From Terriglobia bacterium (GTDB lineage: Bacteria > Acidobacteriota > Terriglobia > Acidiferrales > UBA7541): DNA of 62,024 nucleotides. Under the pieces are notes generated by a model, which ran no database searches, was not told where the DNA came from, and saw only the letters and a program-made list of their open reading frames with translations. Below, piece after piece: positions 31,083 to 47,658 of the stretch. Each line of letters begins with the position of its first letter. Position 1 is the first letter of the stretch. The DNA lies in contig JAIQGC010000059.1 of the NCBI GenBank assembly GCA_020072805.1, positions 1 to 62,024 of the forward strand, in the 5' to 3' direction. The position numbers and the translations under genes are program-made.

Positions 31083-31574
31083 ATGTCCGCCGTTCCCAAG
31101 CCCACTCTTATCGCCAAACTCACTCTCACCAGCAGCGCCTTCGCACCCGGCGCTAAAATCCCGCACCACCACACTTGCTCCGCCGCCGACGTCTCCCCGC
31201 CCCTAGCTTGGAGCGAGCCCCCCGCCGGCACCCAAAGCTTCGCCCTCATCATGGACGACCCCGACGCCCCCGGCGGCACGTGGACCCACTGGGTCATCTT
31301 CGATTTGCCCGCGCAAACCCGCTCTCTCGATGAAAACGTCGAAAAACAAAAAGAGCTTTCGAACGGCGCCCGCCAGGGCCGCAACGACTTCGGCAAATTC
31401 GGCTACGGTGGCCCCTGTCCGCCCCCCGGCAAACCCCACCGCTACTTCTTCAAACTCTACGCCCTCGACCGCAAACTCGCCCTAATCCCCGGCGCCACCA
31501 AGGAAAACGTCGAAAAAGCCATGCAAGGCCACGTACTCGCCGAGGGCGAATTGATGGGACGGTTCGGGCGGTAA
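31083..31574 (+). CDS. YbhB/YbcL family (PEBP-like) protein
   Basis: A 163-residue phosphatidylethanolamine-binding-protein fold. [59 protein letters not shown] and GELMGRFGR are the family blocks forming the anion pocket. The start at 31083 has a near-perfect aggaggtga four bases upstream. An alternative ATG at 30993 would add a hydrophobic leader ([16 protein letters not shown]) that could be a signal peptide, so an exported form is possible. The role is not established in bacteria. It is the last normal-composition gene before the A/T-rich insert with the deaminase. Confidence 0.9.
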
Positions 31575-31669
31575 GCGCTAATCGCAATGGCGTCAAGGGT
31601 TCATCTCCGTGCTTGCTGTCTATTTTCGCTGCAGTACCGAGAACTAAACATTCACTTGACTGCTGGAGT

Positions 31670-33199: not shown

Positions 33200-33224
33200 A
33201 TTCTGTGCCTACAATGAGGAAGCC

Positions 33225-33413
33225 ATGAAAGTATCGAAACAGCTCAATGAAGCACTACAGGCGATATCTAAGGAAGTTGAAGCATGGCCTCAATGGAAAC
33301 GTAGTATCGACCCTCGAGATCATCAGGAGTTAACTACGAAAGGGGCGACTCCTTTTGAGAAGTCAAAGGGGAATGAGAAAGCGCGCTTATCAGATTGCGC
33401 TGCTCAAGGCTGA
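33225..33413 (+). CDS. Small hypothetical protein downstream of the deaminase
   Basis: A 62-residue protein starting 25 bp after the deaminase stop, with gaggaag before its ATG, so probably in the same operon. The first 30 residues (KVSKQLNEALQAISKEVEAW, then PQWKRS) are amphipathic helical and resemble short proteins often seen near defence genes; this is an impression, not a family call. Another frame from about 33373 reads RKRAYQIALLKAESNQRLQK and LLFRHFE to 33459, so the C-terminus may be shifted. The 180 bp to ruvA hold no other gene. Confidence 0.5.
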   Translation: MKVSKQLNEALQAISKEVEAWPQWKRSIDPRDHQELTTKGATPFEKSKGNEKARLSDCAAQG

Positions 33414-33556
33414 GTCGAATCAGCGACTCCAAAAACTGCTTTTCCGGCACTTTGAGTAGGCGATCCCCGGTTGCAGCAATTATTGGAGGTTTGCTTGAGT
33501 AATGGTGTAGTCCTCGCGATGGTTCTGGAAACAAGCCAAGTGACGCTACCCCCCCG

Positions 33557-33585
33557 TTGACAGGCGAAGAAAAAGCGGCAATACT
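33557..33585 (+). promoter_or_regulatory. Candidate sigma-70 promoter directly in front of ruvA
   Basis: The -35 is TTGACA (33557-33562), then a 17-bp spacer, and the -10 is AATACT (33580-33585). The predicted start of transcription lies 1-2 bases before the ruvA ATG at 33594, which would make a leaderless message. It restores ruvAB expression despite the insert upstream. Confidence 0.5.
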
Positions 33586-33593
33586 GGCTCGCC

Positions 33594-34229
33594 ATGATCG
33601 CCCAGTTGCGCGGCTCCCTCGCCGATAAGCGTCCCAACCAGGTCATTCTCGACGTTGCTGGCGTCGGCTATCTCGTGCACATCCCCCTCTCCACCTTCTC
33701 CGCCCTCGGAGAACTCCGCGCCGAAGTCACTCTGCTCATCCACATGCACGTCCGCGAAGACGCCCTCTCCCTCTACGGCTTTCTCTCCTCCCGCGAAAAA
33801 CATCTTTTCGAAATGCTCCTCTCCGCCTCCGGTGTCGGCCCTTCGCTCGCCCTCAAAATTCTCTCCGGCATGAGCGTCGAGGAACTCGTCCCCGCCATCC
33901 GCGCGGGCGACGTGGCCCGTCTCACGCGCATTCCCGGCGTCGGCAAAAAAACCGCCGAGCGCATGGTCGTCGAACTCAAGGACAAACTCGAAGCCGTGGC
34001 CATCGAGCACGAACGCCCCGCTCCCTCCTCTCCCGCCGGCGCCGCCGCCGACGTCGTCTCCGCCCTCACCAACCTCGGCTACGACCCCCGCGCCGCGGAA
34101 ACAGCCGTCGAAGATGCCCGCCGCGCTTCCGCCTCCGCCAACTTCGAGACGCTTCTGCGCGCCGCCCTGCATTCCCTGAGCCAGTCTCCGGCCCAGCCCC
34201 GACCCCGCGCCGCGCGCTCTTCGCCGTGA
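33594..34229 (+). CDS. ruvA: Holliday junction DNA helicase subunit RuvA
   Basis: A 211-residue protein that binds four-way junctions as a tetramer and loads the RuvB motor. Domain I (MIAQLRGSLADKRPNQVILD, VAGVGYLVHIP) is followed by two helix-hairpin-helix motifs (LLSASGVGPSLALKILSGM and LTRIPGVGKKTAERMVVEL). A flexible linker (about 140-155) and the C-terminal RuvB-binding domain (VSALTNLGYDPRAAETAVED) complete it. The length is normal. ruvC is not next to it; the deaminase insert occupies the upstream side. ruvB follows after a 243-bp repeat-filled spacer. Confidence 0.97.
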   Translation: MIAQLRGSLADKRPNQVILDVAGVGYLVHIPLSTFSALGELRAEVTLLIHMHVREDALSLYGFLSSREKHLFEMLLSASGVGPSLALKILSGMSVEELVPAIRAGDVARLTRIPGVGKKTAERMVVELKDKLEAVAIEHERPAPSSPAGAAADVVSALTNLGYDPRAAETAVEDARRASASANFETLLRAALHSLSQSPAQPRPRAARSSP

Positions 34230-34238
34230 TTGAATGGC

Positions 34239-34363
34239 TGTCATCCTGAGTCCCGGTGTTTTTTTACCGGGACGAAGGATCTCAACGTAAGCTTTGGCAC
34301 GCCGCCGGCAACGCCAGCAGAGAACGACCAGTTGAGATCCTTCGGCTTCGCCTCAGGATGACC
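34239..34363. repeat. Inverted pair of TGTCATCCTGAG repeat arms between ruvA and ruvB
   Basis: The left arm 34239-34287 (TGTCATCCTGAG to GAAGGATCTCAACG) and the right arm 34329-34363 (reverse complement GTCATCCTGAGG to GGATCTCAACTG) face each other with about 41 bp between. It contains a hairpin TCCCGG...CCGGGA with a T-rich loop. A low-complexity stretch of GTTCGAGTTTCG-type words follows at 34390-34430. Same family as 11622 and 21655. Confidence 0.8.
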
Positions 34364-34472
34364 GAGTATGCGGAGGGGTAGCAGGAAAGTTCGAGTTTCG
34401 TATTTCGAGTTTCGAATTTCGCGGTTCGGCTCTAAACTGAAAACGGCTAACTGACAACTGTCAACTTTACCC

Positions 34473-35504
34473 ATGCCCGACCAGAACAACCCGCCCCGCA
34501 TCATCTCCGGCCAGGCCATCGACGAAGACGCGCGCCTCGACGCCAGCGTCCGCCCCAAATCCCTCGCCGAATATATCGGCCAGAAGCGCGTCAAGGACAA
34601 CATCCAGATCGCCATCGAAGCTGCCCGCTCCCGCGGCGAAGCCCTCGACCACGTCCTCCTCTACGGCCCTCCCGGCCTCGGCAAAACCACCCTTGCCCAG
34701 ATCATCGCCCACGAAATGAACGTCCCCATCAAAACCAGCGCCGGCCCGCTCCTCGACCGCAAAGGCGACCTCACCGCCGTCCTCACCGGCCTCGAAGCCC
34801 GCGAAGTTTTTTTCCTCGACGAAATTCACCGCCTGCAGCCCGCCGTCGAGGAAGTCCTCTACCCCGCCATGGAAGATTTTCGCGTTGACCTCATCATCGG
34901 CCAGGGCCCCGGCGCGCGCGTCCACCCCTTTCCTCTCGCGCACTTCACTCTCGTCGGCGCCACCACCCGCGCCGGTCTCATCACCGCCCCGCTGCGCTCC
35001 CGCTTCGGCATCGTCCACCGCCTGGATTTCTACGAACCGGCGGATCTGCTCATCATCCTGCACCGCTCCGCCAAAATCCTGAATATCCAAATGGACGAAT
35101 CCGGCGCCGAAGTAATCGCCCGCCGCTGCCGCGGAACGCCGCGCGTCGCCAACCGCCTCCTTCGCCGCACCCGCGATTTCGCCGAAGTCCGCGCCGCCGG
35201 CCGCATCACCCGCGAAGTCGCCCAGGACTCCCTGCGCATGCTCGGCGTGGACGAGAGCGGCCTCGACGAAGTCGACCGCAACCTCATGCTCGCCCTCCTC
35301 GATAAATACGCCGGCGGCCCCGTCGGCCTCGGCACCCTCGCCGCCGTCCTCAGCGAGGAAGAAGACGCCATCGAGGAAATCTACGAACCCTACCTCATGC
35401 AGATCGGCATGATCGACCGCACCCCCCGCGGCCGCGTTGCCACCCCCCGCGCCTACGAATATTTTGGCCGCCAGCTCCCCAAACGCCAGCCCCGCCTCTT
35501 CTGA
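34473..35504 (+). CDS. ruvB: Holliday junction branch-migration ATPase RuvB
   Basis: A 343-residue hexameric AAA+ motor. Walker A is GPPGLGKTT (65-73), Walker B is VFFLDEIHRL, sensor I is LVGATTRAGLI, followed by the arginine-finger region SRFGIVHRLDFY. The winged-helix C-terminus has QIGMIDRTPRGRVATPRAYEYFG. It acts with RuvA in branch migration during recombinational repair. The distance from ruvA (repeat-filled) suggests it may also have its own promoter. It is separated from the DUF2306 gene by another palindromic repeat. Confidence 0.98.
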   Translation: MPDQNNPPRIISGQAIDEDARLDASVRPKSLAEYIGQKRVKDNIQIAIEAARSRGEALDHVLLYGPPGLGKTTLAQIIAHEMNVPIKTSAGPLLDRKGDLTAVLTGLEAREVFFLDEIHRLQPAVEEVLYPAMEDFRVDLIIGQGPGARVHPFPLAHFTLVGATTRAGLITAPLRSRFGIVHRLDFYEPADLLIILHRSAKILNIQMDESGAEVIARRCRGTPRVANRLLRRTRDFAEVRAAGRITREVAQDSLRMLGVDESGLDEVDRNLMLALLDKYAGGPVGLGTLAAVLSEEEDAIEEIYEPYLMQIGMIDRTPRGRVATPRAYEYFGRQLPKRQPRLF

Positions 35505-35531
35505 AATTTCCACCTTCCAAAATTTCTGTAG

Positions 35532-35578
35532 CCGCCCTCTTCAGTCGCAAGACTCCGGGCAGCAGCCGGAGAGGGCGG
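35532..35578. repeat. Nested palindromic element downstream of ruvB
   Basis: The outer stem CCGCCCTC (35532-35539) pairs with GAGGGCGG (35571-35578), and an inner CTCCGG/CCGGAG flanks GCAGCAG. No T-tract follows directly. It is likely one of the small interspersed repeats of this genome; it may also slow transcription. Confidence 0.55.
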
Positions 35579-35673
35579 GCCTTTCCTTGCTATTGTCAGG
35601 TGCAGGGTCCTGAGCTATACTCCGCCACGTTTTGTAATTATTGCGCCGCTGCGCGCCATGGAGGAAATACACA

Positions 35674-36318
35674 ATGGCCACCGCCGCTCCCAATTCCATG
35701 ACTCGCTCAACCTTCCTCCAGGCCAAGCATGTCTTCTGGACTCTCTTCGCCCTGATGACGCTCCTCGTCCTGCTCACCCGCGAGCGCATGCTCCTCGACG
35801 CCCACTCCTTCTTGCGCCAGCGCTACGCCCCCATCCCCTGGCTCATGCTCGCCCATGGCGTTCCCGGCGCTCTCGCTCTTTCCCTCGGCGTCTTTCAGTT
35901 TTCCACCCGCTTCCGCCAGCGCCACCAGCAGCTCCATCGCGTCATGGGCCGCGTCTACGTCGCCTGCGCGATCATCTCCGCTCCCGTTGCCGTCGCTGTG
36001 GCCGTCGCTCTGCCCCTGCCAACGCTCCTCTCGGCTACCGTGATCCAAGCCTTCGGCTGGCTCGTCACCATCGCCACTGCCCTCTATTGCGTGCGCACCG
36101 GCCGCATCCAGCAGCATCGCGAATGGATGATGCGCAGCTATCCCTTCGCCGCCATGTTCGTCATCGTCCGCGTCATTCTCCTGATCCCCGCCATCGAACG
36201 CACCGGCCCCCTCGGCATCGCCTCCGTGGTCTGGAGCGTCCTCGCCGTTTCCTGCTTCCTCCCTTCCTTCTTCATCGCCTGGAAGTCCCTGGCCTCCACC
36301 CGCCGCCGCCCCGCATGA
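35674..36318 (+). CDS. DUF2306 membrane protein
   Basis: A 214-residue protein with about six helices of the DUF2306 family. The typical blocks are PWLMLAHGVPGALALSLGVFQF, QRHQQLHRVMGRVYVACAII and GRIQQHREWMMRSYPFAAMF. Conserved histidines (HGV, HRVMG, HREWM) could bind haem or metal, as in other ferric-reductase-like families, but the function is unknown. The start at 35674 is preceded by ggaggaa (about 8 bases). The longer frame from 35641 is not supported. It is a single-gene unit between repeats. Confidence 0.8.
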   Translation: MATAAPNSMTRSTFLQAKHVFWTLFALMTLLVLLTRERMLLDAHSFLRQRYAPIPWLMLAHGVPGALALSLGVFQFSTRFRQRHQQLHRVMGRVYVACAIISAPVAVAVAVALPLPTLLSATVIQAFGWLVTIATALYCVRTGRIQQHREWMMRSYPFAAMFVIVRVILLIPAIERTGPLGIASVVWSVLAVSCFLPSFFIAWKSLASTRRRPA

Positions 36319-36372
36319 AAATTTTTTATGCGGTCATCGCGCCTGCCTTGCTCTTCTCCTGATTTTGTAGAG

Positions 36373-36514
36373 GCCGGGCTTTAGAGTCTGTGTGGGAACT
36401 CCTGTTTTCAAGGGGGTCGGAGTTTTAACTCCGACATAAATGCGTGCTTTCCAATGCGGCTTTAGCCGCTGGGGAACTGATTTTCGGGTTGTCACACAGG
36501 CTCTTCAGCCCGGC
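36373..36514 (+). repeat. 142-bp interspersed palindromic repeat, copy 3 of 3
   Basis: Same element as at 2936 and 13709, with GCCGGGCTT and AGCCCGGC ends, GTCGGAGTTTTAACTCCGAC and GCGGCTTTAGCCGC inside, and the TGATTTTCGGGTTGTCACAC tail. It occupies most of the spacer between the convergent DUF2306 and DinB genes. Confidence 0.9.
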
Positions 36515-36582
36515 TTCTTTTCAGTCCTTTACCTGCTCGAAAACATTCCCTGCGCCAGTTTTCAGTCCTTTCCCGCAATCCT

Positions 36583-37125
36583 CTAAATCTTGATCCCCGC
36601 CGCCGCCATCCGCGCCTTCATCTCCCTCGTCAGGTGCGGCTCGACCCCGAACAGCCGCTCGATCAGCATCAACTGCCCCCGGTGATGCATCTCGTGTTCC
36701 TTCACGCTCAAAATCATCTCGAACCGGCTTCGCGATGCCGGGTTCGCACCGGGGGGCATCTGCACCCGCTCTGCCAGAAACTTCTCGCTCAGCCCCTCCA
36801 GAAATCCTGCCCATTGCTCCCCGTTGCTCCGCAGCAGCTCCACCACCTGCTTCTTGCTGCGCGCCTGTTTTTCCTCCGCCACCGCCTTCTGAATGAACCC
36901 GGCAAAATCGAATCCCTCGAACGAACTCCGCCGGTCCACCGCGTGCAGCCGGTACTGCATCCCGCACGACAAGGCGATATGCGCCAGCAACTCCCCTACG
37001 CTCCGCCCCTCCGCAAACGCCCGGAACCCGTACTTTTCCTCCGGCACATCCTCCGCCACCACAATCGTATTCTTCCGCACCGTCCGGAAACTCTCCGCCA
37101 GTTCCTTCGCTCCGTAGCCATTCAT
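36583..37125 (-). CDS. DinB-family protein
   Basis: A 180-residue four-helix-bundle protein of the DinB/YfiT superfamily. The metal-binding histidines are in ELLAHIALSCGMQYR and in EHEMHHRGQLMLIERLFG. The start at 37125 is supported by aaggag upstream; the frame from 37182 is longer but lacks a site. Members are often thiol-dependent (mycothiol or bacillithiol) transferases or damage-induced proteins of unknown reaction. A second, more distant member is at 60641. Confidence 0.88.
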   Translation of the reverse strand: MNGYGAKELAESFRTVRKNTIVVAEDVPEEKYGFRAFAEGRSVGELLAHIALSCGMQYRLHAVDRRSSFEGFDFAGFIQKAVAEEKQARSKKQVVELLRSNGEQWAGFLEGLSEKFLAERVQMPPGANPASRSRFEMILSVKEHEMHHRGQLMLIERLFGVEPHLTREMKARMAAAGIKI

Positions 37126-37563
37126 AGTGCCCCCTTCTCCTTGTGATCTCGGAAATACCCGCAAACCCCAAAATCGAACCATACACCTTTCTCCCCGCCG
37201 ATGGCATATCCGTTTCGCTCCAGAACCAGCGGGGGTGCCGCACCCTTATGCTTTTTAAGGGTGCGGGTTTTGACTTTCCTCGCCATTTTTTCGCCGCCAG
37301 CCAGTCTCTCCTCGAAGCGTGACCCGCTTCCGCGCCGCCTCCGCCGCCAAAGCCCCGGCCAGCCAGTCCCCTGAGCCATCAACAAATCAACCGATCCCCA
37401 TGCGCCAGCCTCAGAGTGGCACAGCCATTCCTGGCTGTGCGCCTTTCCCGTCCCCCGTTTTTCCCCATGAATAGACCAACCACGCCAGTAAAGAAACCTC
37501 CTGCGGAACTCCCGCGCCAGCCATGAGCATCCCACCGCCCTCACGGGCTACAATGGTCCAGCC
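37126..37563. other. 438-bp gene-free spacer with two hairpin repeats
   Basis: No convincing gene is seen on either strand. Two palindromes are present. CCGCACCCTT/AAGGGTGCGG with a 9-base loop lies at 37238-37266. GCACAGCCA-TTCC-TGGCTGTGC lies at 37419-37440. The rest is a divergent promoter region for dinB-like (minus) and folK (plus). Confidence 0.6.
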
Positions 37564-38070
37564 ATGCCCATGCAACAAATCTACCTCTCGCTCGGCTCCA
37601 ACGTGGGCGACCGCCCCGCCAATCTCCGCTCCGCCCTCGCCGCCCTCGAACAAGCGGGCGTCCACGTTCTCCGCGTCTCCTCCCTCTACGAAACCGAGCC
37701 CGTCGACTTCCTCGACCAGCCCTGGTTCCTCAATTGCGTCCTCCACGCCGAAACCGAGCTTCCCGCGCGGGATCTCCTCCGCGCCCTCCGCGCCATCGAA
37801 GCCTCCCTCGGCAGCAGCAAGCTCATCCCCAAAGGTCCGCGCCTCCTCGATCTGGACATCCTTCTCTACGGCCTGGAAACCATTGCCGAGCCTGACTTAC
37901 AGATCCCTCACCCGCGGATGCTCCAGCGCCGCTTCGTCCTCATCCCCCTCGCCGAGCTGGCCCCGGCCCTCCGCCATCCCTCCTGGGATGCAACCGCCGC
38001 CGAACTGCTCGCCCGCTGTCCCGACCGCAGCACTGTCCGCCCCGGTCCTACTGGCCTTTCGGACAATTAA
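37564..38070 (+). CDS. folK: 2-amino-4-hydroxy-6-hydroxymethyldihydropteridine pyrophosphokinase
   Basis: A 168-residue enzyme of folate synthesis that transfers pyrophosphate from ATP to 6-hydroxymethyl-7,8-dihydropterin. IYLSLGSNVGDRPANLRSAL, SLYETEPVDFLDQPWFLNCV, GPRLLDLDILLYG (the catalytic metal-binding block) and IPHPRMLQRRFVLIPLAEL are all conserved. folP and folB are not adjacent. The start could be either ATG at 37564 or 37570. It is followed by the S1C protease after 93 bp. Confidence 0.95.
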   Translation: MPMQQIYLSLGSNVGDRPANLRSALAALEQAGVHVLRVSSLYETEPVDFLDQPWFLNCVLHAETELPARDLLRALRAIEASLGSSKLIPKGPRLLDLDILLYGLETIAEPDLQIPHPRMLQRRFVLIPLAELAPALRHPSWDATAAELLARCPDRSTVRPGPTGLSDN

Positions 38071-38163
38071 CTTATACGCGTTCTCCGTGCCCGTTTCCGT
38101 TGCCCCGTTCCGAGACTGCTCCCATCATCATAAAAGCACTAATCTTGCGCGAGGGAAACCGTT

Positions 38164-39852
38164 ATGAAACGTATTGGCATCTTTGCCGCTCTTCTTCTGG
38201 CCTCTCTCCTGGGAACCCCGGCGCACGCCGCTCCCGTCAAGGTCCGCCTCCGTGTCATCCTCGTCGACGGCGACCTGAACCAGAAGCCCGTACCGTTCCT
38301 GACCGTCGCCTTCAAAGGCGCCGGCGCCTCCTCCGAAGTCAAAACTGCCCTCGACGGCACCGCGGAAACCAATCTCGCTCCCGGCGCTTACACCGTCTCG
38401 ACGATCAAGCCCGTGGAATTGGCGGGCAAGCGTTATTCGTGGTCCGTTCACGTAACCCTTTCCGGCGCTGAGAAAACCATTGACCTGACCAACGAGAACG
38501 CCAAAGAGGAGGAATCCGCCGCCTCGGCTTCGCCGCGCTCCGCCGGAGCCTCCGCGGGCGACCTCACCGAGCAATTCAAAAGACTGAAAAATACCGTGGT
38601 CACCGTGATCAGCGAATCCGGTCACGGCACCGGCTTTTTCGTGGACGGCAAGGGCCTGGTCCTCACCAACCAGCACGTCGTCGGAAAATCCGAATATCTC
38701 GCCGTGCAGTTCGACCGCGAACGCAAAATCGCTGCGCGCTTGATCGCCTCCGATGCGCAGAAGGATGTGGCCCTGCTGTGGGTCAATATGAGCGCCCTGC
38801 CCAGCGCCGCTCCCGCCGTGCTGGCCCGCGGCCACGCCCAGGTGCAGGAGGGCGAACGCGTCTTCACCATCGGCAGCCCCCTCAGTTTGGACAAGATCAT
38901 CACCACCGGCATCATCAGCAAGGTGGACGCGCACACTATCATGTCCGACATCAATATCAATCCCGGAAATTCCGGCGGGCCGCTCTTCAACAACGCCGGC
39001 CAGGTCGTTGGTCTGACCACCTTCGGCACCAGCGCGGCTGTCGGCCCCGGCGTTTCCGGCGTCGTGCGCATCGAAGAAGCCCTCGCGCTGCTCGATGAAA
39101 ATCGCGCCAAGGCCGCCGGCACTCCGCCGCCGGGCGCGCTCCTTCCGGTCGAGCCGCTCACTCCCTATCCGGTGGAGGGATTGAAAGCCGCCTTGCAGGG
39201 AGAAAAATTCGATCCCAAGCCGTATTACCTGAGCGCCGGTGATTTCAATATCGCCCTCTCCACTCCGCCCTTTGATTACCGCGAAAAGGAAGAGAATCGT
39301 CTGCGCGCCGAACGCACCCAGAAGAAGCGCAACAAGCGCGGCCACGGCGGCGACGCGGAGCCCGCGGACGACGGCGGCGAGGATTCCCCGCGCGACTGGC
39401 AATCCGAAACCGGCGGCCACAAAGCCGTTTTCGGCATTTATGTTCAGCCCAAGGTAAAGGAAGGATTCGGTTCGTCTTTTTCCCGCAGCCTGCGCAATGG
39501 TTACGGCGCCGCCAAAATGAAGTTCAAGACCGACTTCCAGAGCATGAAACTCTTCTGCGGCGACAAGGAAGTTCAGCCCATTCTTCCCGGAAGAATGCCC
39601 ATCACCGTCAACGTCCGCAACTCCTCCGTGCGCATGGAGGATTCCAGTTACAAGGGCGTCTACTTGTACTCTCCCGATGCCGTCAATCCCGATTGCGGCG
39701 CCGTGAAAATTGCCATCTATTCCTCGAAGAACGATGAGCCGGTCATCAAACAGCTGGATGGAAACACCGTGGACCACATCTGGGCCGATTTCGAGTCCTT
39801 CCGCCAGGCCGAAGCGCAGGCTCATCCCGGCGGCGGCAAGAAGAAGCGTTAG
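38164..39852 (+). CDS. Exported S1C-type serine protease (DegP/HtrA-like catalytic domain, no PDZ)
   Basis: A 562-residue protein with signal peptide MKRIGIFAALLLASLLGTPA. Residues 25-110 resemble a carboxypeptidase-regulatory-like beta domain (VPFLTVAFKGAGASSEVKT). The trypsin-like domain carries H171 (TNQHVVG), D201 (QKDVALLW) and S270 (NPGNSGGPLF). No PDZ domain follows. The remaining 240 residues include a basic stretch (RTQKKRNKRGHGG) and a beta-rich tail of unknown family. It is probably a periplasmic quality-control or processing protease. A strong terminator follows at 39889. Confidence 0.88.
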   Translation: MKRIGIFAALLLASLLGTPAHAAPVKVRLRVILVDGDLNQKPVPFLTVAFKGAGASSEVKTALDGTAETNLAPGAYTVSTIKPVELAGKRYSWSVHVTLSGAEKTIDLTNENAKEEESAASASPRSAGASAGDLTEQFKRLKNTVVTVISESGHGTGFFVDGKGLVLTNQHVVGKSEYLAVQFDRERKIAARLIASDAQKDVALLWVNMSALPSAAPAVLARGHAQVQEGERVFTIGSPLSLDKIITTGIISKVDAHTIMSDININPGNSGGPLFNNAGQVVGLTTFGTSAAVGPGVSGVVRIEEALALLDENRAKAAGTPPPGALLPVEPLTPYPVEGLKAALQGEKFDPKPYYLSAGDFNIALSTPPFDYREKEENRLRAERTQKKRNKRGHGGDAEPADDGGEDSPRDWQSETGGHKAVFGIYVQPKVKEGFGSSFSRSLRNGYGAAKMKFKTDFQSMKLFCGDKEVQPILPGRMPITVNVRNSSVRMEDSSYKGVYLYSPDAVNPDCGAVKIAIYSSKNDEPVIKQLDGNTVDHIWADFESFRQAEAQAHPGGGKKKR

Positions 39853-39888
39853 CGCCGGGCAGTCCGCCGCGGCGGATACGGGAAATAG

Positions 39889-39923
39889 CAGGGGCCCCGG
39901 TCACTCCGGGGCCCCTGTTTTTT
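39889..39923 (+). terminator. Strong rho-independent terminator
   Basis: A perfect 12-bp stem CAGGGGCCCCGG / CCGGGGCCCCTG, loop TCACT, then T6. It closes the S1C protease gene and lies 14 bp before the end of the convergent DUF6569 gene. It also lies within the interval where the GC skew changes sign. Confidence 0.92.
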
Positions 39924-39937
39924 GCCCGGGCAATCGC

Positions 39938-41095
39938 TCAGGACGTGCGCCGCACCAGCAGCCGGTGCAGCAGCAGCGGCTTCGGCGCGAGCGACTCCAG
40001 CTCAACCAGCGACAGATGCCCTTCGCTGATCTCCCGCACGCGATACACGCCGGGTTCGCTCTCCTCCTGTTCGTGCCCCGCCGGACGCCGCAGGAACTCG
40101 CGCGCGCTTTCCACCGTGGCGGTTTCGCGGAGGCCCGGCCGCGCCAGCGCCTCGACGGAGTAACTGCGCAGCAGCTTGCCCGAGTACTGCTCGAAGAGCG
40201 CGCCGGAAGCGAAGATGTCGCTCCAGGCCACTTCTCCGCCGTAGGCCACGATCACGCCCACCACGCGCTCGCCCTTGAGCCCGGCGGTGGCTTGCGCGAA
40301 GCGCTTGCGCAACTCCTCGGAGAAGCTGTCCACCGAAGCGCCCGCCCCGCTCTCCTGGTAGATCTTGGCGTAGGACTGCGTCGGCGCATCGGCGGCGATG
40401 GTGCGGGCGATCTCGCTGGCCGTAAGACTCGGCGCGGCTGCGGCCGCGCCGCCGGAGCGCATCTCCGCGGTCGAGCCGGAACTCACCGCGGCCCACACTT
40501 CGGCCTGCTTGTGGGCAATGGCGGCCTTCTCGCGCACGCTGGGGTGCACGATGATCTTCGAGGCGCTGAAGTTTGCTCCCGAGGACCAGCGGCCGTGTTC
40601 CACGCAGAAGACGTCGAGCGGCAGCGGCGCGGAGCCGGGCGGCACGATGCGGTCTTTGGCGATCACGCGGTCCTGCTTGCCGCCGCTGACCAGTTCTCCG
40701 GCGAGCAGCAGCAGGGGGCGCTTGCCGCGGTTGATGAGCACGAGGTTGTTGACCGATGCTCCGCGGTAATCATCGGGGGGCGTGGGGTGGCGGGAATCGC
40801 GGCTGCGGGCCATGCCTTCCGCGCCCTGTTCGCTGACCATCACCTCGCCGCTGGCCAGGCCCTGATCGAGGGTAAGAAAGGCGCTGGTGTCCGCGTCCGC
40901 CGCGCTGACCACGGGGAACAGGGTGATGTTCTCGTAGCTGACGGGAGCAAGAAGCCGCCAGACGGGTGCCGGGGATGACGTCCGCGGAGCGGCTCCGGCC
41001 GGTGCGCCGTGCCCGGCCCAGGCGGCGGCCAGGGTAAATAAAGCACAGAGAATGAGTATGTTGCGTGCGTGGCGGTGCAGGCGTGCGTGGTTCAT
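39938..41095 (-). CDS. DUF6569 (ARPP-1-like) exported protein
   Basis: A 385-residue protein beginning with a signal peptide (NILILCALFTLAAAWAGHGAP). The body holds the DUF6569 blocks: WRLLAPVSYENITLFPVVSA, YLTLDQGL-like FLTLDQGLASGEVMVSEQG, VNNLVLINRGKRPLLLLAGE, LVSGGKQDRVIAKDRIVPPG and LDVFCVEHGRW. The start at 41095 follows agggaggaattc; the frame could extend to 41320 but would cross the divergent gene. No biochemical function is known to me. It is divergent from the M20 hydrolase gene with a 149-bp shared spacer. Confidence 0.75.
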   Translation of the reverse strand: MNHARLHRHARNILILCALFTLAAAWAGHGAPAGAAPRTSSPAPVWRLLAPVSYENITLFPVVSAADADTSAFLTLDQGLASGEVMVSEQGAEGMARSRDSRHPTPPDDYRGASVNNLVLINRGKRPLLLLAGELVSGGKQDRVIAKDRIVPPGSAPLPLDVFCVEHGRWSSGANFSASKIIVHPSVREKAAIAHKQAEVWAAVSSGSTAEMRSGGAAAAAPSLTASEIARTIAADAPTQSYAKIYQESGAGASVDSFSEELRKRFAQATAGLKGERVVGVIVAYGGEVAWSDIFASGALFEQYSGKLLRSYSVEALARPGLRETATVESAREFLRRPAGHEQEESEPGVYRVREISEGHLSLVELESLAPKPLLLHRLLVRRTS

Positions 41096-41244
41096 GAATT
41101 CCTCCCTTTCGAATGCAATGGCATGTGCGTACAGGACGCTGCGGCGGGACTTCCGCGCAGCGCTCCTGGGAAGAGAACGGGCGGGCGGGGAATTCTTGCA
41201 GGGAATTTTTGCGTGTGCGAGACTGCGGTCCGGGAGAATCGGCC

Positions 41245-42585
41245 ATGTCCAGGAACGGGATTCGAAACTTTGCGGTGGGGTTGAGTCTGGCGCTGCTGGC
41301 GGGAAGTTCGGGGAGCGCACAGCAGAGCGGCGGGGCTGCCGCCGAAAGGAACGTGCGGCAGGAGCGGCTGTGGTTGACGCTCGAAAAACTCGGTGAGTTT
41401 GGAAAAAATCCCGAAGGAGGAGTGAGCCGGGTGGGATTCACGGAGGAGGATCTGGCCGGGCGGGCGTACGTGATGGGGCTGATGCGCGAAGCGGGGCTGG
41501 AGGTGCGCGTGGATGCCGCGGGAAATATTTTCGGGCGGCGCGCGGGGCGCGAGAATCTCCCCGTGCTGCTCTTCGGCTCGCACATTGATTCGGTGCCGCA
41601 CGGAGGAAATTTCGACGGGGACGTGGGCAGCCTGAGCGCCATCGAAGTGATCCGCGCGCTGGGCGAGCACAAGGTGACGACGCGGCATCCGCTGGAGGTG
41701 GTCATCTGGTCGAACGAAGAGGGCGGGCGGTATTATTCCGGGCTGTTTGGCTCTTCGGCGGCGGCGGGGATTTTGCCGGCGGAGGTGGCCGGGCGCAAGG
41801 ATGAAAAGGGCGAAACGCTGGGAAACTGGCTCGCGCGCATGGGCGGAGTCGGCGCGCGGATCGCGGAGGCGAAGATTGCTCCGGGACGCGTGGCCGGGTA
41901 CGTGGAGCTGCACATCGAGCAGGGCGCGACGCTTGACGAAGCGAAGACGCCGATTGGGGTGGTGCAGGGAATCGTGGGGATCAGCCTGCGGTATTGCACG
42001 GTTGTGGGATTTGCCAATCATGCGGGAACGACGCCGATGAACCGCCGCCGCGACGCGCTGGCCGCGGCAGCGCGGGCGGTGCTGGCGCTGCGGGAGGAAG
42101 TTCGCGCGGAGCCGGGACGGCAGGTGGGCACGGTAGGGGAGTTGAAGCTGGAGCCGGGGGCGAGCAACGTCATCCCGGGCCGCGTCGTGTTTTCGGTGGA
42201 GCTGCGCGATCTCGATGCCGATAAAATTGCGCGAATTGGCGAGCGGATTCAGCGGCGGCTGGAAATCATCGGCAAGGAAGAAAACGTGGCCATCGCCTGC
42301 ACGGAGGCGGACCTGCACCGGCCGGCGCTGACGGCGCCCGCGTTTCAGGAGGCCATTCGCGCGTCGGCGCGCGAGGCGGGACTGGCGACGATGGATTTAC
42401 CCAGCGGGGCAGGGCATGACGCGCAGAATGTGGCGCGGTTCGCCCCGGTGGGGATGATCTTCGTGCCCAGCCGCGGGGGCATCAGCCATTCACCGCTGGA
42501 GTTTACCCCGCCGGAAGCGGTGGCCAATGGCGCGGAGGTGCTCTACCGGGCAGTGCTGCGGCTGGACGGGGTACTGGATAAGTAG
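41245..42585 (+). CDS. M20-family Zn-dependent hydrolase (N-carbamoyl-amino-acid/allantoate amidohydrolase-like), exported
   Basis: A 446-residue protein with a signal-like N-terminus (FAVGLSLALLAGSSGSAQQ). H113 and D124 (GSHIDSVPHGGNFDGDVG), E158/E159 (WSNEEGGRY) and a His in VELHIEQG make the two-zinc site. GFANHAGTTPMNRRRDAL and SGAGHDAQNVARFAPVGMIF are hallmarks of the carbamoylase/allantoate branch. The start at 41245 has gggag upstream. An exported form of this family is uncommon among characterised members. Hydantoin or ureide breakdown would supply ammonium, in line with the nitrogen genes here, but no pathway partner adjoins it. Confidence 0.9.
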   Translation: MSRNGIRNFAVGLSLALLAGSSGSAQQSGGAAAERNVRQERLWLTLEKLGEFGKNPEGGVSRVGFTEEDLAGRAYVMGLMREAGLEVRVDAAGNIFGRRAGRENLPVLLFGSHIDSVPHGGNFDGDVGSLSAIEVIRALGEHKVTTRHPLEVVIWSNEEGGRYYSGLFGSSAAAGILPAEVAGRKDEKGETLGNWLARMGGVGARIAEAKIAPGRVAGYVELHIEQGATLDEAKTPIGVVQGIVGISLRYCTVVGFANHAGTTPMNRRRDALAAAARAVLALREEVRAEPGRQVGTVGELKLEPGASNVIPGRVVFSVELRDLDADKIARIGERIQRRLEIIGKEENVAIACTEADLHRPALTAPAFQEAIRASAREAGLATMDLPSGAGHDAQNVARFAPVGMIFVPSRGGISHSPLEFTPPEAVANGAEVLYRAVLRLDGVLDK

Positions 42586-42715
42586 GTTGGATGTGGGGTT
42601 ATCTTGAGGCTGCATGAAATCCAATGATTATTTGGCGATTTGCGGAGAAATGATATGCTCGCGCGGCATGGGGGAATCCAGAAAATAAAGCCGGAAGGCG
42701 AGGGTCAGCGGGACG

Positions 42716-44329
42716 ATGAGCAAACCACTGCTGCCGATACAGGAGATTGCGCGCAAGCTGGGCATTTCGGAGGCTCACTATGAGCCTATCGGGAATTACG
42801 GCGCGAAACTCAAGCTGGAACTGCTGAACGATCCCGCGTTTCCCCGGCGCGGCAAACTCATCCTGGTGACGGCCACGACGCCGACGGCTTCGGGCGAAGG
42901 CAAGACGGTCACTTCCATCGGGCTGACCCAGGGGCTCGAGAGGATCGGCAAGAAAACGGTCATCACCTCGCGGGAGCCTTCGCTGGGGCCGATTTTTGGG
43001 ATCAAAGGGGGAGCGGCGGGCGGGGGCATGTCCCAGCTAGAACCCAGCCAGAAGATTAATCTGCACTTTCATGGCGATTTTCATGCGGTGACGACGGCGC
43101 ACAATCTGCTGGCCGCGCTGATTGACGCGCATCTCTTTCACGGCAACGATTTGCAGTTGGACCCCGAGCTGGTGAGCTGGCCGCGCACGATGGACATGAA
43201 CGACCGCGCGCTGCGGCGCATTGCCGTGAGCTTGGGCGGAAAAGAGGATGGCGCGGGGCGGCAGACGGGTTTTGTGATCACCGCGGCCTCGGAAGTGATG
43301 GCCATCCTGGCGCTGGCCAAGAATCGCGAGGATTTGCGGCGGCGGCTGGGAGAAATCGTCGTGGGGGTTTCGCGCTCCGGGAAGAAAGTGACCGCGCACG
43401 ATCTGGGCGCGACCGGCGGCATGCTGGCGCTGCTCACCGACGCCATCCTGCCGAATCTGGTGCAGACCAGCGAAGGCACCCCGGCGATGGTGCATGCGGG
43501 CCCGTTTGGAAATATCGCGCATGGAACGAGCAGCGTGATTTCGCATGAGATGGGCCTGCGCCTGGCGGAGTATGTGGTGAACGAGGCGGGATTCGCGGCG
43601 GATCTCGGCGCGGAAAAGTACATGGACATCGTGATGCGCACGTCGGGGATTGCGCCCGCGGCGGCGGTGCTGGTGACCTCGGTGCAGAGCCTGAAGCTGC
43701 AGGGCGAAGGGGAGTTGCAGCGGGGCTTCGCCAATCTGGGCAGGCACGCGGAAAATCTGCGGCGTATGGGGCTGCCCACCGTCGTGGCCATCAATCATTT
43801 TCCTAAAGACACGCAGGACGAACTCGAGCGCATCGCCGCATTTTGCGGAGAACTGGGCGTGGCCCATGCGCAGAGCGAAGCGTTCGCCAAGGGCGGCCTG
43901 GGCGCGGTGGCGCTGGCCGAGAAAGTGGTGGAGACGATCGGAAAAAATCCCGATGCCAAACCGCGGTCCGTCTATCCGCTCGAAGACGCGCTGACGGTGA
44001 AGATCGAAAAAGTGGCCAAGGAGATTTACGGGGCCAGCGGTGTGAACTACAGCGAGAAAGCCCAGGCCAAGCTGCAGCGATTCAGCGAGTGGGGCTGCGC
44101 GGGGCTGCCCATTTGCATCGCCAAGACGCAGTACTCTTTTTCCGATAATCCCAAACTGATGGGAGCGCCGCGGGACTGGACGTTGCAGGTCACCGACGCA
44201 TCGCTTTCGGCCGGCGCGGGCTTCGTGGTGGTGATGGCCGGAAACATCATGCTCATGCCGGGCCTGCCGAAAGTTTCGCGGGCCGCGCAGATTGACGTGT
44301 CACCGGGGGGAGAAATCCTGGGCGTGTGA
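42716..44329 (+). CDS. fhs: Formate--tetrahydrofolate ligase
   Basis: A 537-residue ATP-dependent enzyme that joins formate to THF, giving 10-formyl-THF for one-carbon metabolism. The P-loop is TPTASGEGKT (55-64). SREPSLGPIFGIKGGAAGGG, MDMNDRALRRI and FGNIAHGTSSVI are signature blocks, as is ICIAKTQYSFSDNPKLMGAP near the C-terminus. It is about 18 residues shorter than the usual 555. It is a single-gene unit; no folD or purine gene adjoins it. The upstream ribosome site is weak (agcggg). Confidence 0.97.
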   Translation: MSKPLLPIQEIARKLGISEAHYEPIGNYGAKLKLELLNDPAFPRRGKLILVTATTPTASGEGKTVTSIGLTQGLERIGKKTVITSREPSLGPIFGIKGGAAGGGMSQLEPSQKINLHFHGDFHAVTTAHNLLAALIDAHLFHGNDLQLDPELVSWPRTMDMNDRALRRIAVSLGGKEDGAGRQTGFVITAASEVMAILALAKNREDLRRRLGEIVVGVSRSGKKVTAHDLGATGGMLALLTDAILPNLVQTSEGTPAMVHAGPFGNIAHGTSSVISHEMGLRLAEYVVNEAGFAADLGAEKYMDIVMRTSGIAPAAAVLVTSVQSLKLQGEGELQRGFANLGRHAENLRRMGLPTVVAINHFPKDTQDELERIAAFCGELGVAHAQSEAFAKGGLGAVALAEKVVETIGKNPDAKPRSVYPLEDALTVKIEKVAKEIYGASGVNYSEKAQAKLQRFSEWGCAGLPICIAKTQYSFSDNPKLMGAPRDWTLQVTDASLSAGAGFVVVMAGNIMLMPGLPKVSRAAQIDVSPGGEILGV

Positions 44330-44388
44330 GGGAATTTTTAGCGGGATGATTTTGTCGAGGGCGGTGGGACAGGCAAGCGTGGTTATGC

Positions 44389-44418
44389 CGTAGGGGCACG
44401 GCATGCCGTGCCCCTACG
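44389..44418. repeat. 30-bp perfect palindrome
   Basis: The two half-sites are CGTAGGGGCACGGCA and TGCCGTGCCCCTACG. A near-copy with one mismatch lies at 61195-61226. Both lie just outside gene 3' ends and are followed by no T-tract. Confidence 0.85.
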
Positions 44419-44425
44419 AAAAAGG

Positions 44426-45039
44426 TCAGGGCAGGATGATGCGCGGTTCTTCGCGCTGTAATTCGGGCGATTGGGGAAACTGGGTGCGGAGAAATTCCAG
44501 GAAGCGCCGCGAGCGCGGGCGCGCGTTGCCGCGCAGAAGCCCCATGCGGTAGAGAAACACAATCAGCAGGAAAATCTGGGAATCATTGGCGGGAGGAACG
44601 CCCGCGGGGGCGTCGCCCTGCCGCTTCGTCTCGGTCAAAAATTCCATCAGTGCGGCGTAGAGTGCCTGCTGCAAGTGATGCCGCCGCGGAGCGTTTTGTA
44701 GGTTTCGCCGAGAGCGTGCAGAGCGGACATGGCGTCGGAATCGGTGGCGGCGGGATTGCCGGATGCGAACCTGGCGATGGTAAAGGCGATGCCGGAGAGC
44801 AGATGCTGCTGCTGGTAGACGACTTCGCGGGAAAGGTCCACGTCGAGGAAGGGAGCATCGGCGGGAGCGGGGCGGGGATGCTCATTCTCGTAGCGGTGCG
44901 CCGCATGAAGATAGGCGCAGGCGGAGGGGCAGTCGATGGTGACTTCGCGCTCGGTGCCGCAGCAGACCGGGCAGATGGTTTCGCCCTTGGCGGGGCAGAA
45001 GCGGCCGGGTTTTCTTTTTTCGCAGATGGGACAGGCCAC
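44426..45039 (-). CDS. Cys-rich zinc-ribbon-like protein, frame disrupted
   Basis: The N-terminal part (45039 to the stop at 44647) reads ACPICEKRKPGRFCPAKGE and TICPVCCGTEREVTIDCPSA; paired CxxC motifs suggest a zinc ribbon. It ends ALGETYKTLRGGIT before running into unrelated codons. The second part (44674 to 44426, another frame) reads LQQALYAALMEFLTETK, SQIFLLIVFLYRMGLLRGNA, RPRSRRFLEFLRTQFPQSPE and LQREEPRIILP, which looks like the natural C-terminus. Adding one base at about 44675 (ATCACT to ATCCACT on the coding strand) joins them. I therefore read one gene of about 204 codons with a shift. The function is unknown. Confidence 0.6.
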
Positions 45040-45089
45040 GGACGTTTCCTCGCAGGAGCCGGTAAAAAGAAAGGATACGCGGAGCGGGG

Positions 45090-47477
45090 TTAAAAGACAA
45101 AAGTGCGGCGGAGGAGGGTTTCGTCGCCAGAGTGATGGGGGATGGAGTCGGGGGGGCGAGAAGAAAAAGTTTTGCCGGGGATTTCGGGGAGGCCGGAAGA
45201 GCGGCTGACGACGGAAAGTTTCAGCGTGGCGGGGCCGCGGAGGATGAGTTTGAGTTCGATGCCTTCGGCGGGGGGATTCGAATAAGTCAGCATCCAGTTT
45301 CCACCGGGATTGAAGCGGGCGGCCTTAGGGTCGCCCAATTTCTTTCCATTCACCCAGGAGTCCACGATTTGCGAATCGGAGACGGAAAGGGAGAGGACGC
45401 GGGCGGGGCGAGGAGCGGTGATGCGCAGAAGGAGAGTGCGCGTGTCGGCGGCGACGGTGGATTCGAGGAGACGCGCTTCGGGCGGGGGGAGCGGGAGGAC
45501 GGGAGCGTCGTGCTGGAGGAGTTCGGCCTGATGCCACGGGGGGAAGAAGGCGGGGAGTTTGGCGCGGATGGGTGAATCGCCGACGAATTGCTGGGTCCAG
45601 GAGTCGGCGCGGAAGGAAGTGGAAGCCCAGAGGGCTTTGCCGGAATCGGCGTCGAGGGCATAGACCAACATGCTGGGCTGGGGATGATCGGGGCTGTAGC
45701 GGGTGAAGAGCGCGCCGGCGGCGAAGAAGAGGAGGGCGGCGGCCAGCGCATTCAGCGGAAGGAGGACGCCTTCCGTGGCGAGGAGAGCTTCGATGGCCGG
45801 GGCCAGGGACATGAAGAGAAGAGCGAGAAGAAGAGCGAGGAGCGGAGCGCCCATGGTGGTGAGGCCGAGAGCGACGTAGAAGCCGTGGAAGAGCGGAAGG
45901 ATGAGGAGCAGAGCGGGGAGGGAAATGAGGCACAGGACGACGGCGTAGGCCACAGAGGCGAGCGTGGCGGCAGCGGAAGTGTGTGAGGCCGCGGAGGAGT
46001 TTTCTTCGGACGGAGTTTCTTCCTGGGGCGCGAGCGCGGGCGCTTCTTCTTGCGGCGGTTCGGGAGCGGAGAAATCGAGCATGGCCTGGAGGACGAAGAG
46101 GGGCCAGAGGAAGGCGTAGTTGCCGCCGGGGAGCCATTTGGCGAGTGCGAGAGTGACAGCGAGGAGAATGAGCGCGCCGCCAAGATTGAGCGGGAGCGGA
46201 CCCCAGATTTTTCTGCGCCAGAGGAGCAGGGCGGTCCAGAGAGCGGCGCAGAGAGCGATCAGGCTGAGGAGGTACCAGACGTTCTGCGTTAGATCGCCCG
46301 CGGGAAGTTTTTTCCCGTGCAGCCAGGCGATTAATTTTATAAAACCGAAAGCCACGAGGGGAAGCGCGAGCAGGGCCAAAAGATTTACGCCCAGGCCTTG
46401 CAGGACGCGCTTGTAAGAAATTTGCGCAGCGGGGGAGCGCAGATAGAAAAAACGGGCGAAAGAAATAGCGGTGAGAGCGAGGGCCACGAGGGAGAGAGGC
46501 CAGGTCCAGGAAGCGGGGTAGTGGAGGAAAGCGATGCCGGGGAGGGAGAAATAGACGGCGTCGGGCTCCTGCAATTTGGCGAGATCGGCATTGCCGAAAA
46601 AGCGGGCGAGGGAGAGAGCCGCCTCGCCATGCTGCTGGAGGCTGCCGCGGTCGAGTTCATCGGGATTATCGAGCGGCGTGTGATAGGCGGCCCAATGGCC
46701 GATGAAGGCGAAGTTCATCGCGGGAGCGCCGGATTTTTTGAAAATGGTCAAGTCGGTGTCGTTGGGCATGCGGCGATAGATTTCGTAGGTGAAGGAGGAG
46801 CCGGCGGGGTGGGGAGATTTGGCGAGGGCGGAGATGAGCAGGCCGTTCTGGGAGCTGGTTTCGAAAAGTTGGGAGACGCCGGAGTTTCCGCGGGCTTCGA
46901 AATTGATGGCGATGCGGACGTCGGGCGCCCAGGGATGTTCGGCCATGAAGGCGGAAGCGCCGAGCAGGCCGTCTTCCTCGGCATCGGTGAAGAGGAAGAT
47001 GACGTCATGGAGCAGGGGAGGGGAGGCGCGAAGGGCGCGGAGAGTTTCGAGAAGGGCGGCGACGCCGGCGGCGTCATCGCCCGCGCCGGGACCGGCGGCG
47101 ACGGAATCGTAATGAGCGGCGAGGAGAATGGCGCCGCCGCTGCCGGACAAGCCGGGAAGGCGCGCGGCGATATTTTCGACGGAACCGGCTGCGAGATATT
47201 TTTCGGTGACGGCGGTGGTGCGCTGAATTTGCGGGTCGAGGCCGAGGCGGGTGAGTTCGGCGACGAGGGCGTCACGGACGCGATTGTGTTCGGCGCTGCC
47301 GGAGGGGTGGGGTCTGCGGGCGATCTGGTATTCGTAAGTCATGGCGCGCTCGGCGGAGAATTCGGCGGCGGGGGCGGTTTCTCCAGCGGGATGAGGAGGA
47401 ATTTCGAGGAGGATACAGAGAGAGGAGGCAAGGAGAAGGAAAAGCAAGATTGCCGAGTTGGCCGCTTTGCCGCGCAT
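45090..47477 (-). CDS. M28-family membrane metallopeptidase
   Basis: A 795-residue protein. A first helix (residues 8-24) anchors an M28 aminopeptidase domain in the periplasm. The zinc ligands are H122 (AAHYDSV), D134 (GAGDDAAG), E168 (DAEEDGLLG, with the neighbouring E167 as catalytic base), E194 (NFEARGNSG) and H266 (AYHTPLDN). About eight more membrane helices follow between 320 and 640, then a C-terminal beta-rich domain of about 150 residues. The layout matches the ERMP1/Fxna-like M28 group of eukaryotes and some bacteria. The substrate is unknown. Confidence 0.9.
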   Translation of the reverse strand: MRGKAANSAILLFLLLASSLCILLEIPPHPAGETAPAAEFSAERAMTYEYQIARRPHPSGSAEHNRVRDALVAELTRLGLDPQIQRTTAVTEKYLAAGSVENIAARLPGLSGSGGAILLAAHYDSVAAGPGAGDDAAGVAALLETLRALRASPPLLHDVIFLFTDAEEDGLLGASAFMAEHPWAPDVRIAINFEARGNSGVSQLFETSSQNGLLISALAKSPHPAGSSFTYEIYRRMPNDTDLTIFKKSGAPAMNFAFIGHWAAYHTPLDNPDELDRGSLQQHGEAALSLARFFGNADLAKLQEPDAVYFSLPGIAFLHYPASWTWPLSLVALALTAISFARFFYLRSPAAQISYKRVLQGLGVNLLALLALPLVAFGFIKLIAWLHGKKLPAGDLTQNVWYLLSLIALCAALWTALLLWRRKIWGPLPLNLGGALILLAVTLALAKWLPGGNYAFLWPLFVLQAMLDFSAPEPPQEEAPALAPQEETPSEENSSAASHTSAAATLASVAYAVVLCLISLPALLLILPLFHGFYVALGLTTMGAPLLALLLALLFMSLAPAIEALLATEGVLLPLNALAAALLFFAAGALFTRYSPDHPQPSMLVYALDADSGKALWASTSFRADSWTQQFVGDSPIRAKLPAFFPPWHQAELLQHDAPVLPLPPPEARLLESTVAADTRTLLLRITAPRPARVLSLSVSDSQIVDSWVNGKKLGDPKAARFNPGGNWMLTYSNPPAEGIELKLILRGPATLKLSVVSRSSGLPEIPGKTFSSRPPDSIPHHSGDETLLRRTFVF

Positions 47478-47658
47478 GGGACTCCCTGAGCAAAACCGGA
47501 TGGGAGCGCTTTGCCGGAGAGGGCCAAAGCGAACCGGGGAAAAGGGTAGGCTGAAACTGGGGGAGGCGCAAGTGGGGGATGAAAGTCAGAGGCCGTTGCG
47601 CACGTCACGGAACGGCGTCCAGGAATCGTTTCCGAGCGGGAGAGGATTCGTCTGGAGG

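What the first reader, a model, noticed from the sequence alone, without database searches (positions are those of the whole stretch)
39300..40800. GC-skew sign change with origin-type polarity
From 1 to about 39 kb the + strand is C-rich in genes of both directions (for example glnD on minus, amt on plus). From about 40.7 kb on it is G-rich in genes of both directions (for example M28 on minus, dnaG on plus). A change from C-rich to G-rich is what is seen at replication origins. dacB, mutS2, dnaG and rpoD on the right are all read away from the switch. I see no DnaA-box cluster and no dnaA/dnaN. A recent inversion or a false join at the repeat-poor border is an alternative.
Basis: partly seen in the sequence, partly recalled or inferred. 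Interest (0 to 1): 0.65.

Follow-up and report, generated by a model that had tools for sequence, protein, structure and literature searches.

The report
Many origin-like strand switches, one bacterium
The strand switch in this stretch of a bacterial genome is real, but it is only one of many such switches along the chromosome, in a sawtooth pattern like that of human DNA, which is copied from many starting points, and not what is expected in bacteria, which normally start copying at a single site.

Summary
Confirmed and extended. The + strand is C-rich in 36 of 40 1-kb steps left of 40 kb and G-rich in 21 of 21 right of 41 kb; change point 40.36 kb. The sign ignores gene direction and also holds between genes. 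A unique oriC, a false join or a simple inversion do not fit: dnaA and dnaN lie on another contig, no DnaA-like box lies within 1 kb, and gene order across the switch is kept in relative G009. In 1.10 Mb held of this 3.98-Mb genome, sharp upward jumps outnumber sharp downward ones 19 to 3, with slower declines between: the N-domain sawtooth of human DNA. Of 15 relatives examined, 9 have an upward jump of at least 0.15 at this locus. Best reading: one of tens of replication-initiation zones of a bacterial chromosome, placed without DnaA boxes. Fork direction was not measured; recurrent break or recombination sites are the main rival. Against tight conservation, local skew at 62 orthologous positions does not correlate with G009 (r=0.04). 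Ten library searches listed no such sawtooth in a bacterium, though multiple polarity changes have been reported (PMC3269012).

The parts
1..39850 (+). C-rich (pyrimidine-rich) skew domain, interrupted by two low-GC islands
39300..41250 (.). Switch zone; cumulative minimum 40,355, likelihood change point 40,361; GC 0.70 within 500 bp, lowest 100-bp GC within 1.5 kb 0.49
41000..62024 (+). G-rich (purine-rich) skew domain; by gene order in G009 it continues on contig C16, where the skew declines to zero
38164..39852 (+). Trypsin-like peptidase gene, left partner of the convergent pair at the switch
   Evidence: Pfam PF13365
39938..41095 (-). ARPP-1 domain protein gene, right partner of the convergent pair; the change point falls inside it
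   Evidence: Pfam PF20208
34473..35504 (+). ruvB, anchor used to find the same locus in relatives
37416..37449 (+). REP-like hairpin repeat, also found near some other switches and mostly on the pyrimidine-rich strand
49334..60076 (+). dacB, mutS2, dnaG, rpoD on the G-rich strand (a 723-aa minus ORF lies between dnaG and rpoD)

Best explanation
The switch is one of tens of places from which replication forks habitually leave in both directions in this genus of Acidobacteria-like bacteria (about 47 in this genome, extrapolated from 6 in 508 kb of unselected contigs). Forks from neighbouring zones meet in broad regions in between. Over long times the strand copied as leading strand became rich in G and A, so each zone shows as an abrupt C-to-G jump and each meeting region as a slower decline. 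The zones are not marked by DnaA boxes, lie more often than chance at boundaries between oppositely read genes, and drift by several kb between species. Shown: the switches, the sharp-up/slow-down shape, independence from gene direction, recurrence at this locus in a majority of the relatives examined. Inferred: that the polarity is replication-fork direction, and that the zones are active today.
For: 19 upward against 3 downward peaks at a threshold of 0.2 over 0.81 Mb scanned. Largest change over 6 kb +0.42 upward, -0.22 downward; falling intervals are more numerous (238 v 155) and gentler (mean -0.07 v +0.12). At the strongest switches a plateau of about 14-39 kb precedes the decline (C19, C13, C103, window). 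Third-position skew has the sign of the surrounding domain in 99-100% of genes of either direction in strong domains (304 genes), intergenic DNA follows, and only 139 of the 304 lie on the G-rich strand. In 56 loci of other bacteria (those of the 80 that are 14 kb or longer) 0.45% of positions exceed +0.2 and none -0.2; here 9.6% and 0.5%. In 9 of 15 relatives this locus has an upward jump of at least 0.15 against 5 of 37 overlapping 40-kb windows of one relative and 0 of 18 shorter blocks. Several sign changes occur inside long contigs of relatives. A REP hairpin sits on the pyrimidine-rich strand in 12 of 13 cases.
Against: No fork direction, read depth or timing was measured. No shared motif at the 16 switches used; DnaA-like boxes occur at only one of them (C94, two relaxed matches within 1 kb). 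Local skew at 62 orthologous positions does not correlate with G009 (r=0.04), and third-position skew over 110 syntenic orthologues only weakly (r=0.22; same sign in 44 of 73 strongly skewed genes). Not all switches have a plateau: C93, C61 and C15 fall to near zero within about 6-10 kb. Four of 15 long stretches (C12, C13, C54, C128) hold no listed switch. In 400 kb of G036 there are 2 upward and 1 downward jumps at 0.15, so its asymmetry is weaker and its spacing larger. Six of 15 relatives stay at 0.08-0.14 here, and the loci L009 and L010 of gp2 Acidobacteria are flat over 17-21 kb. Genes show no orientation preference. Bacteria are held to use one origin per chromosome (PMC10331603, passages).
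Confidence: 0.5

Rival explanations
1. Recurrent double-strand breaks or recombination hot spots. At each switch the ends are cut back, leaving single-stranded 3' tails that mutate (loss of G, gain of T), or they seed recombination-dependent synthesis outward. Skew then falls with distance.
For: Same polarity expected (inference); between genes AT skew has the same sign as GC skew in strong domains, and fourfold sites differ from G009 mainly by C-G transversion, not by the C-to-T change usually invoked. REP hairpins lie near switches (median 3.3 v 13.3 kb, 13 copies). No initiator motif. Some switches decay within 6-10 kb.
Against: Plateaus of tens of kb next to the strongest jumps are not a simple decay; recurrence in the genus needs stable break sites.
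Confidence: 0.21
2. Another strand-asymmetric process with fixed polarity domains, such as an unknown repair or DNA-transfer process.
For: Unusual substitution pattern; no orientation preference of genes.
Against: I know of no process other than replication or resection that makes outward domains of 40-80 kb symmetrical about a point.
Confidence: 0.15
3. This switch is the single main oriC; the other switches come from rearrangements and foreign DNA.
For: It has the largest of the 19 peaks (0.447), and an upward switch recurs at this locus in 9 of 15 relatives.
Against: Rearrangements add sharp up and down steps equally, not 19 to 3. No DnaA boxes here and dnaA/dnaN elsewhere. In G009 the next switch (about 653 kb) is stronger than the one near this locus (0.28 v 0.13).
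Confidence: 0.08
4. Assembly or binning artefact, or a recent local inversion.
For: Draft of 157 contigs; sharp downward steps near the locus in G023 and G042 look like breakpoints.
Against: Gene order across the switch is kept in G009 on a 767-kb contig and in part in G008, G010 and G006; sign changes also occur in long contigs of other genomes.
Confidence: 0.03
5. Transcription-driven skew.
For: The gene gap nearest the switch is a strand boundary in 11 of 16 cases v about 33% at random points.
Against: Sign is independent of gene direction, in genes and between them.
Confidence: 0.03

Closest known systems
Skew N-domains of the human genome (PMC4729899, passages read)
   Same: Abrupt upward jumps, gradual decline between, many per chromosome, initiation in zones
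   Different: Human domains are 0.5-3 Mb and backed by timing and Okazaki data; here about 70 kb, bacterial, sequence only. Human initiation prefers divergent gene pairs; here 7 of 16 convergent and 4 divergent
DnaA-independent multi-origin replication of Synechocystis 6803, Nostoc 7120 and dnaA-less cyanobacteria (PMC7198777, passages read)
   Same: Bacterial chromosome copied from several sites without a DnaA-oriC signature
   Different: There initiation is asynchronous and skew irregular; here strong, ordered domains. [quoted passage not shown] here their domain matches are 1.4 kb apart
Skew-based proposals of multi-origin bacteria (Xia 2012, PMC3269012, passages; Gao 2015, PMC4403523, part 1 of 2; SkewDB, PMC8941118, passages)
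   Same: Several polarity changes read as possible multiple origins (Wigglesworthia, Wolbachia, Synechocystis, Mycoplasma pulmonis; one Salmonella chromosome)
   Different: Those authors leave rearrangement, transfer or assembly open; here the sharp-up/slow-down asymmetry, independence of gene direction and recurrence in a genus were tested
Multi-origin archaea (Sulfolobus three origins, Haloferax volcanii two; PMC3269012, passages)
   Same: Several origins on one chromosome visible in skew
   Different: Two or three origins, not tens; archaeal initiators (recalled)

Membership tests
Canonical bacterial oriC | Cluster of DnaA boxes | tested here: not met
   No match to TTWTNCACA within 1 kb of the window switch; 1 exact TTATCCACA in the 1.10 Mb held, on C93
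Canonical bacterial oriC | Next to dnaA/dnaN | tested here: not met
   dnaA and dnaN matches on C94
Canonical bacterial oriC | AT-rich unwinding element | tested here: not met
   GC 0.70 within 500 bp of the switch; lowest 100-bp GC within 1.5 kb 0.49, random mean 0.44
Canonical bacterial oriC | Unique upward skew switch | tested here: not met
   19 upward peaks in the sequence scanned
Skew N-domain (multi-origin replication) | Sharp upward jumps with slower decline between | tested here: met
   for this genome; weaker in G036 (2 up, 1 down)
Skew N-domain (multi-origin replication) | Skew not explained by transcription | tested here: met
Skew N-domain (multi-origin replication) | Fork direction reverses at the jumps | not testable with these tools
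   needs Okazaki or fork-direction sequencing
Skew N-domain (multi-origin replication) | Positions conserved between related species | tested here: inconclusive
   9 of 15 relatives have the jump at this locus, but pointwise correlation with G009 is absent
Inversion or false join | Sharp up and down switches in equal number, broken gene order | tested here: not met
   19 up v 3 down; collinear in G009
R-loop origins through loss of RNase HI | No RNase HI | tested here: not met
   RNase_H match at 3e-47 in this genome; recG match in 36 of 36 genomes, over cut-off in 30
Cyanobacterial-type DnaA-independent multi-origin replication | dnaA dispensable for replication | not testable with these tools
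   needs genetics; dnaA is present in this genome

The most novel reading that the evidence does not exclude
A bacterial genus whose chromosome is copied in a eukaryote-like way from tens of initiation zones that keep their rough positions over evolutionary time and are independent of DnaA boxes, with zone spacing (about 70 kb to some 300 kb) differing between species.
Probability: 0.4. Interest if true: 0.95.

Novelty: new variant of a known kind. Interest (0 to 1): 0.85.

Why it matters
One origin per chromosome is treated as a rule for bacteria and underlies models of cell-cycle control, gene order and growth-rate estimates from coverage. A genus with tens of fixed initiation zones would break that rule and make the question of why bacteria use one origin directly testable. 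Even if the cause is recurrent breakage, a bacterial genome with polarity domains of tens of kb would be an unusual record of strand-biased mutation.

Tried and rejected
Rejected: unique oriC at the switch; inversion or chimera; transcription as the cause; loss of RNase HI or RecG. The word CCGTATCC is within 1 kb of 8 of 16 switches but is only marginal after allowing for the 15,840 words tested (about 0.08), and its contexts have nothing in common. GC dips at switches: p 0.09. A first REP pattern had the wrong spacer and found nothing; corrected. All ten paper searches (others returned nothing) looked for precedents; I saw the listings, and passages or parts of seven papers (PMC8941118, PMC10331603, PMC4403523, PMC7198777, PMC7111523, PMC3269012, PMC4729899). 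None listed describes a sharp-up/slow-down sawtooth in a bacterium; preprints and most subscription papers are not in that library.

Rows dropped: of the 19 upward peaks, three were left out of later counts: C13 at 13.3 kb and C152 at 17.7 kb (beside short stretches of opposite skew; at C152 a low-GC island) and C140 at 12.9 kb (a shoulder). The three downward peaks were C13 7.4 kb, C15 32.2 kb and C103 87.5 kb. Stretches held: contigs C1-C20 unselected; C61, C126, C103, C140, C54, C93, C102, C128 taken because they matched repeats of the window, so REP-bearing contigs are over-represented; C94 for dnaA; C152 the window. Several contigs were held in part. The density estimate uses only C1-C20 (6 of the 16 switches in 508,232 bases). 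The 15 relatives are those of the 35 other genus members with enough sequence around ruvB; G003 (split over contigs) and G007 (fragmented) also matched and were left out.

Full report
What was asked.

Skew in 1-kb steps is negative in 36 of 40 steps on the left and positive in 21 of 21 on the right; the best split exceeds all of 5000 block shuffles. The change point is 40.36 kb, inside the right partner of a convergent pair: a trypsin-like peptidase gene and an ARPP-1 domain gene. The left domain is broken at two low-GC islands (18-21 and 32-33 kb), which encode Thoeris-like proteins and a dCTP deaminase-like defence protein. That these probably foreign genes lack the skew of their place suggests that the skew is acquired slowly by residence (inference).

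The genome. The window is contig C152 of a 3.98-Mb genome in 157 contigs, 99.8% complete. The best named matches for one protein (M20 peptidase) are 'Acidobacteria gp2' metagenome genomes at 60 and 68% identity. With its own, 36 genomes of the genus were searched. dnaA and dnaN matches lie 1.4 kb apart on C94.

It is one of many. I hold 1.10 Mb of this genome, window included. Of the 15 stretches of 30 kb or more, 11 contain at least one of the 16 switches used later; C12, C13, C54 and C128 do not, although C13 shows the long decline. The typical shape is an abrupt rise from about -0.2..-0.39 to +0.15..+0.36 and then a slower fall over tens of kb to negative values before the next rise (for example C19 at 20 kb, C103 at 42 kb, C126 at 16 kb). 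At the strongest switches a plateau of 14-39 kb precedes the fall; at C93, C61 and C15 the skew is near zero within 6-10 kb. At a threshold of 0.2 between flanks of 6 kb there are 19 upward and 3 downward peaks over 0.81 Mb. Over 6 kb the largest rise is +0.42 and the largest fall -0.22. Inversions or joins cannot do this, since they add sharp steps of both signs equally. In 56 loci from other bacteria (of 80 fetched, those of 14 kb or more) 0.45% of positions exceed 0.2 upward and none downward, with one locus reaching 0.24; here 9.6% and 0.5%. In E. coli, 50 kb around oriC change by about 0.1.

It is not transcription. Taking the sign of each domain from flanking DNA, third-position skew in strongly C-rich domains is -0.46 in + genes (n=83) and -0.34 in - genes (n=65); in strongly G-rich domains +0.39 (n=74) and +0.49 (n=82). 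Between genes in these domains the skew is -0.13 to -0.20 and +0.12 to +0.22, and AT skew has the same sign. 139 of 304 genes lie on the G-rich strand. Genes came from a simple caller of my own, which missed at least the ARPP-1 gene. At fourfold sites of 49 genes in strong domains, compared with relative G009, C on the purine-rich strand of G009 is G here at 62% of sites, and G is C at 6%: the difference is mainly C-G transversion, not the C-to-T change usually invoked. The genomes are diverged, so multiple changes per site are likely and direction is not proven.

Relatives. G009 contig C1 (767 kb) follows C152 and then C16 in gene order over about 100 kb, apart from one inverted segment of about 8 kb and missing genes such as formate-THF ligase, which is on another contig there; so the two contigs probably adjoin here. 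The distance between successive upward switches is then about 69 kb in both species (40.4 kb of C152 to 47.1 kb of C16, ignoring any gap; 584.3 to about 653.3 kb in G009, the latter near the edge of the scan), displaced by roughly 12 and 4 kb. Pointwise, however, local skew at 62 orthologous positions does not correlate (r=0.04), and third-position skew over 110 syntenic orthologues correlates weakly (r=0.22; same sign in 44 of 73 strongly skewed genes). At the ruvB-ARPP1-dacB locus, third-position skew tends from negative on the left to positive on the right in most of the relatives, with the flip at different genes; G025 and G030 are unclear at gene level. An upward jump of at least 0.15 is found in 9 of 15 relatives, the other six having 0.08-0.14, against 5 of 37 overlapping 40-kb windows of G036 and 0 of 18 shorter blocks, 16 of them from weakly skewed G009. 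The peaks lie from about 13 kb left to 9 kb right of ruvB where ruvB was placed. G036 has larger domains: 2 upward and 1 downward jump at 0.15 in 400 kb. dnaA in G009, G003, G004 and G006 does not sit at a sharp upward switch in the 20 kb fetched around it; in this genome dnaA is too near a contig end to tell.

What marks the switches. Nothing obvious. No enriched word survives testing and there is no AT-rich dip. DnaA-like boxes occur near only one of 16 switches: C94 at 46 kb has two relaxed matches within 1 kb where 0.02 are expected; it is the contig that also bears dnaA, 42 kb away, and may hold the DnaA-dependent origin. The gene gap nearest a switch is a strand boundary in 11 of 16 cases against about 33% at random. 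A REP-like hairpin lies on the pyrimidine-rich strand in 12 of 13 cases, median 3.3 kb from a switch against 13.3 kb at random; numbers are small. RNase HI and RecG are present, so R-loop origins through loss of RNase HI are unlikely here.

Reading. The shape resembles the skew N-domains of human chromosomes, where jumps were read as origins and linear declines as gradual change of fork direction, later confirmed by Okazaki sequencing (PMC4729899, passages). In bacteria, replication from several origins has been shown in some cyanobacteria with irregular skew (PMC7198777, passages) and proposed from skew in a few others (PMC3269012, passages; PMC4403523, part 1 of 2). A recent review states a single origin per chromosome for all bacteria (PMC10331603, passages). 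I judge multi-zone replication the best explanation (0.50) and recurrent breakage or recombination the main rival (0.21); the first was lowered from 0.52 in the returned draft after noting that plateaus are missing at some switches and that G036 is less asymmetric. Fork direction was not measured, outgroups could not be fetched, and conservation is only regional.

Noticed in passing
window 18157-20884: Low-GC island with a TIR plus SLOG/STALD-like protein and two ThsB-like proteins: Thoeris-like defence genes (best PADLOC match 5e-51)
   Followed up: partly
window 31613-33199: Low-GC gene for a deaminase with a strong match to a PADLOC dCTPase defence model (4.6e-147)
   Followed up: partly
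window 37416-37449 and 18 other places in the genome: REP-like hairpin GGCACAGCCATTCCTGGCTGTG and variants; 19 matches in the genome, five of them within 0.5 kb on C117
   Followed up: partly
C94 (L111), 45.2-46.6 kb of the contig: Two relaxed DnaA-like boxes beside a skew switch on the contig that also bears dnaA, a possible DnaA-dependent origin
   Followed up: partly
strongly skewed 4-kb blocks of the genome held (544 kb): Octamer GGGCGGCT is over-represented on the purine-rich strand (96 seen, 49 expected; 10 on the other strand), possibly a polar motif
   Followed up: no
G023 (L223-L224) and G042 (L215-L216): Sharp downward skew steps about 4-8 kb left of ruvB where the window's left-hand genes were not found, likely rearrangement breakpoints
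   Followed up: no
genus, PF00075 search: RNase_H matches below 1e-40 only in G000, G009 and G025; the 31 other genomes with a match have E between 2e-16 and 8e-6, and 2 of 36 have none
   Followed up: no
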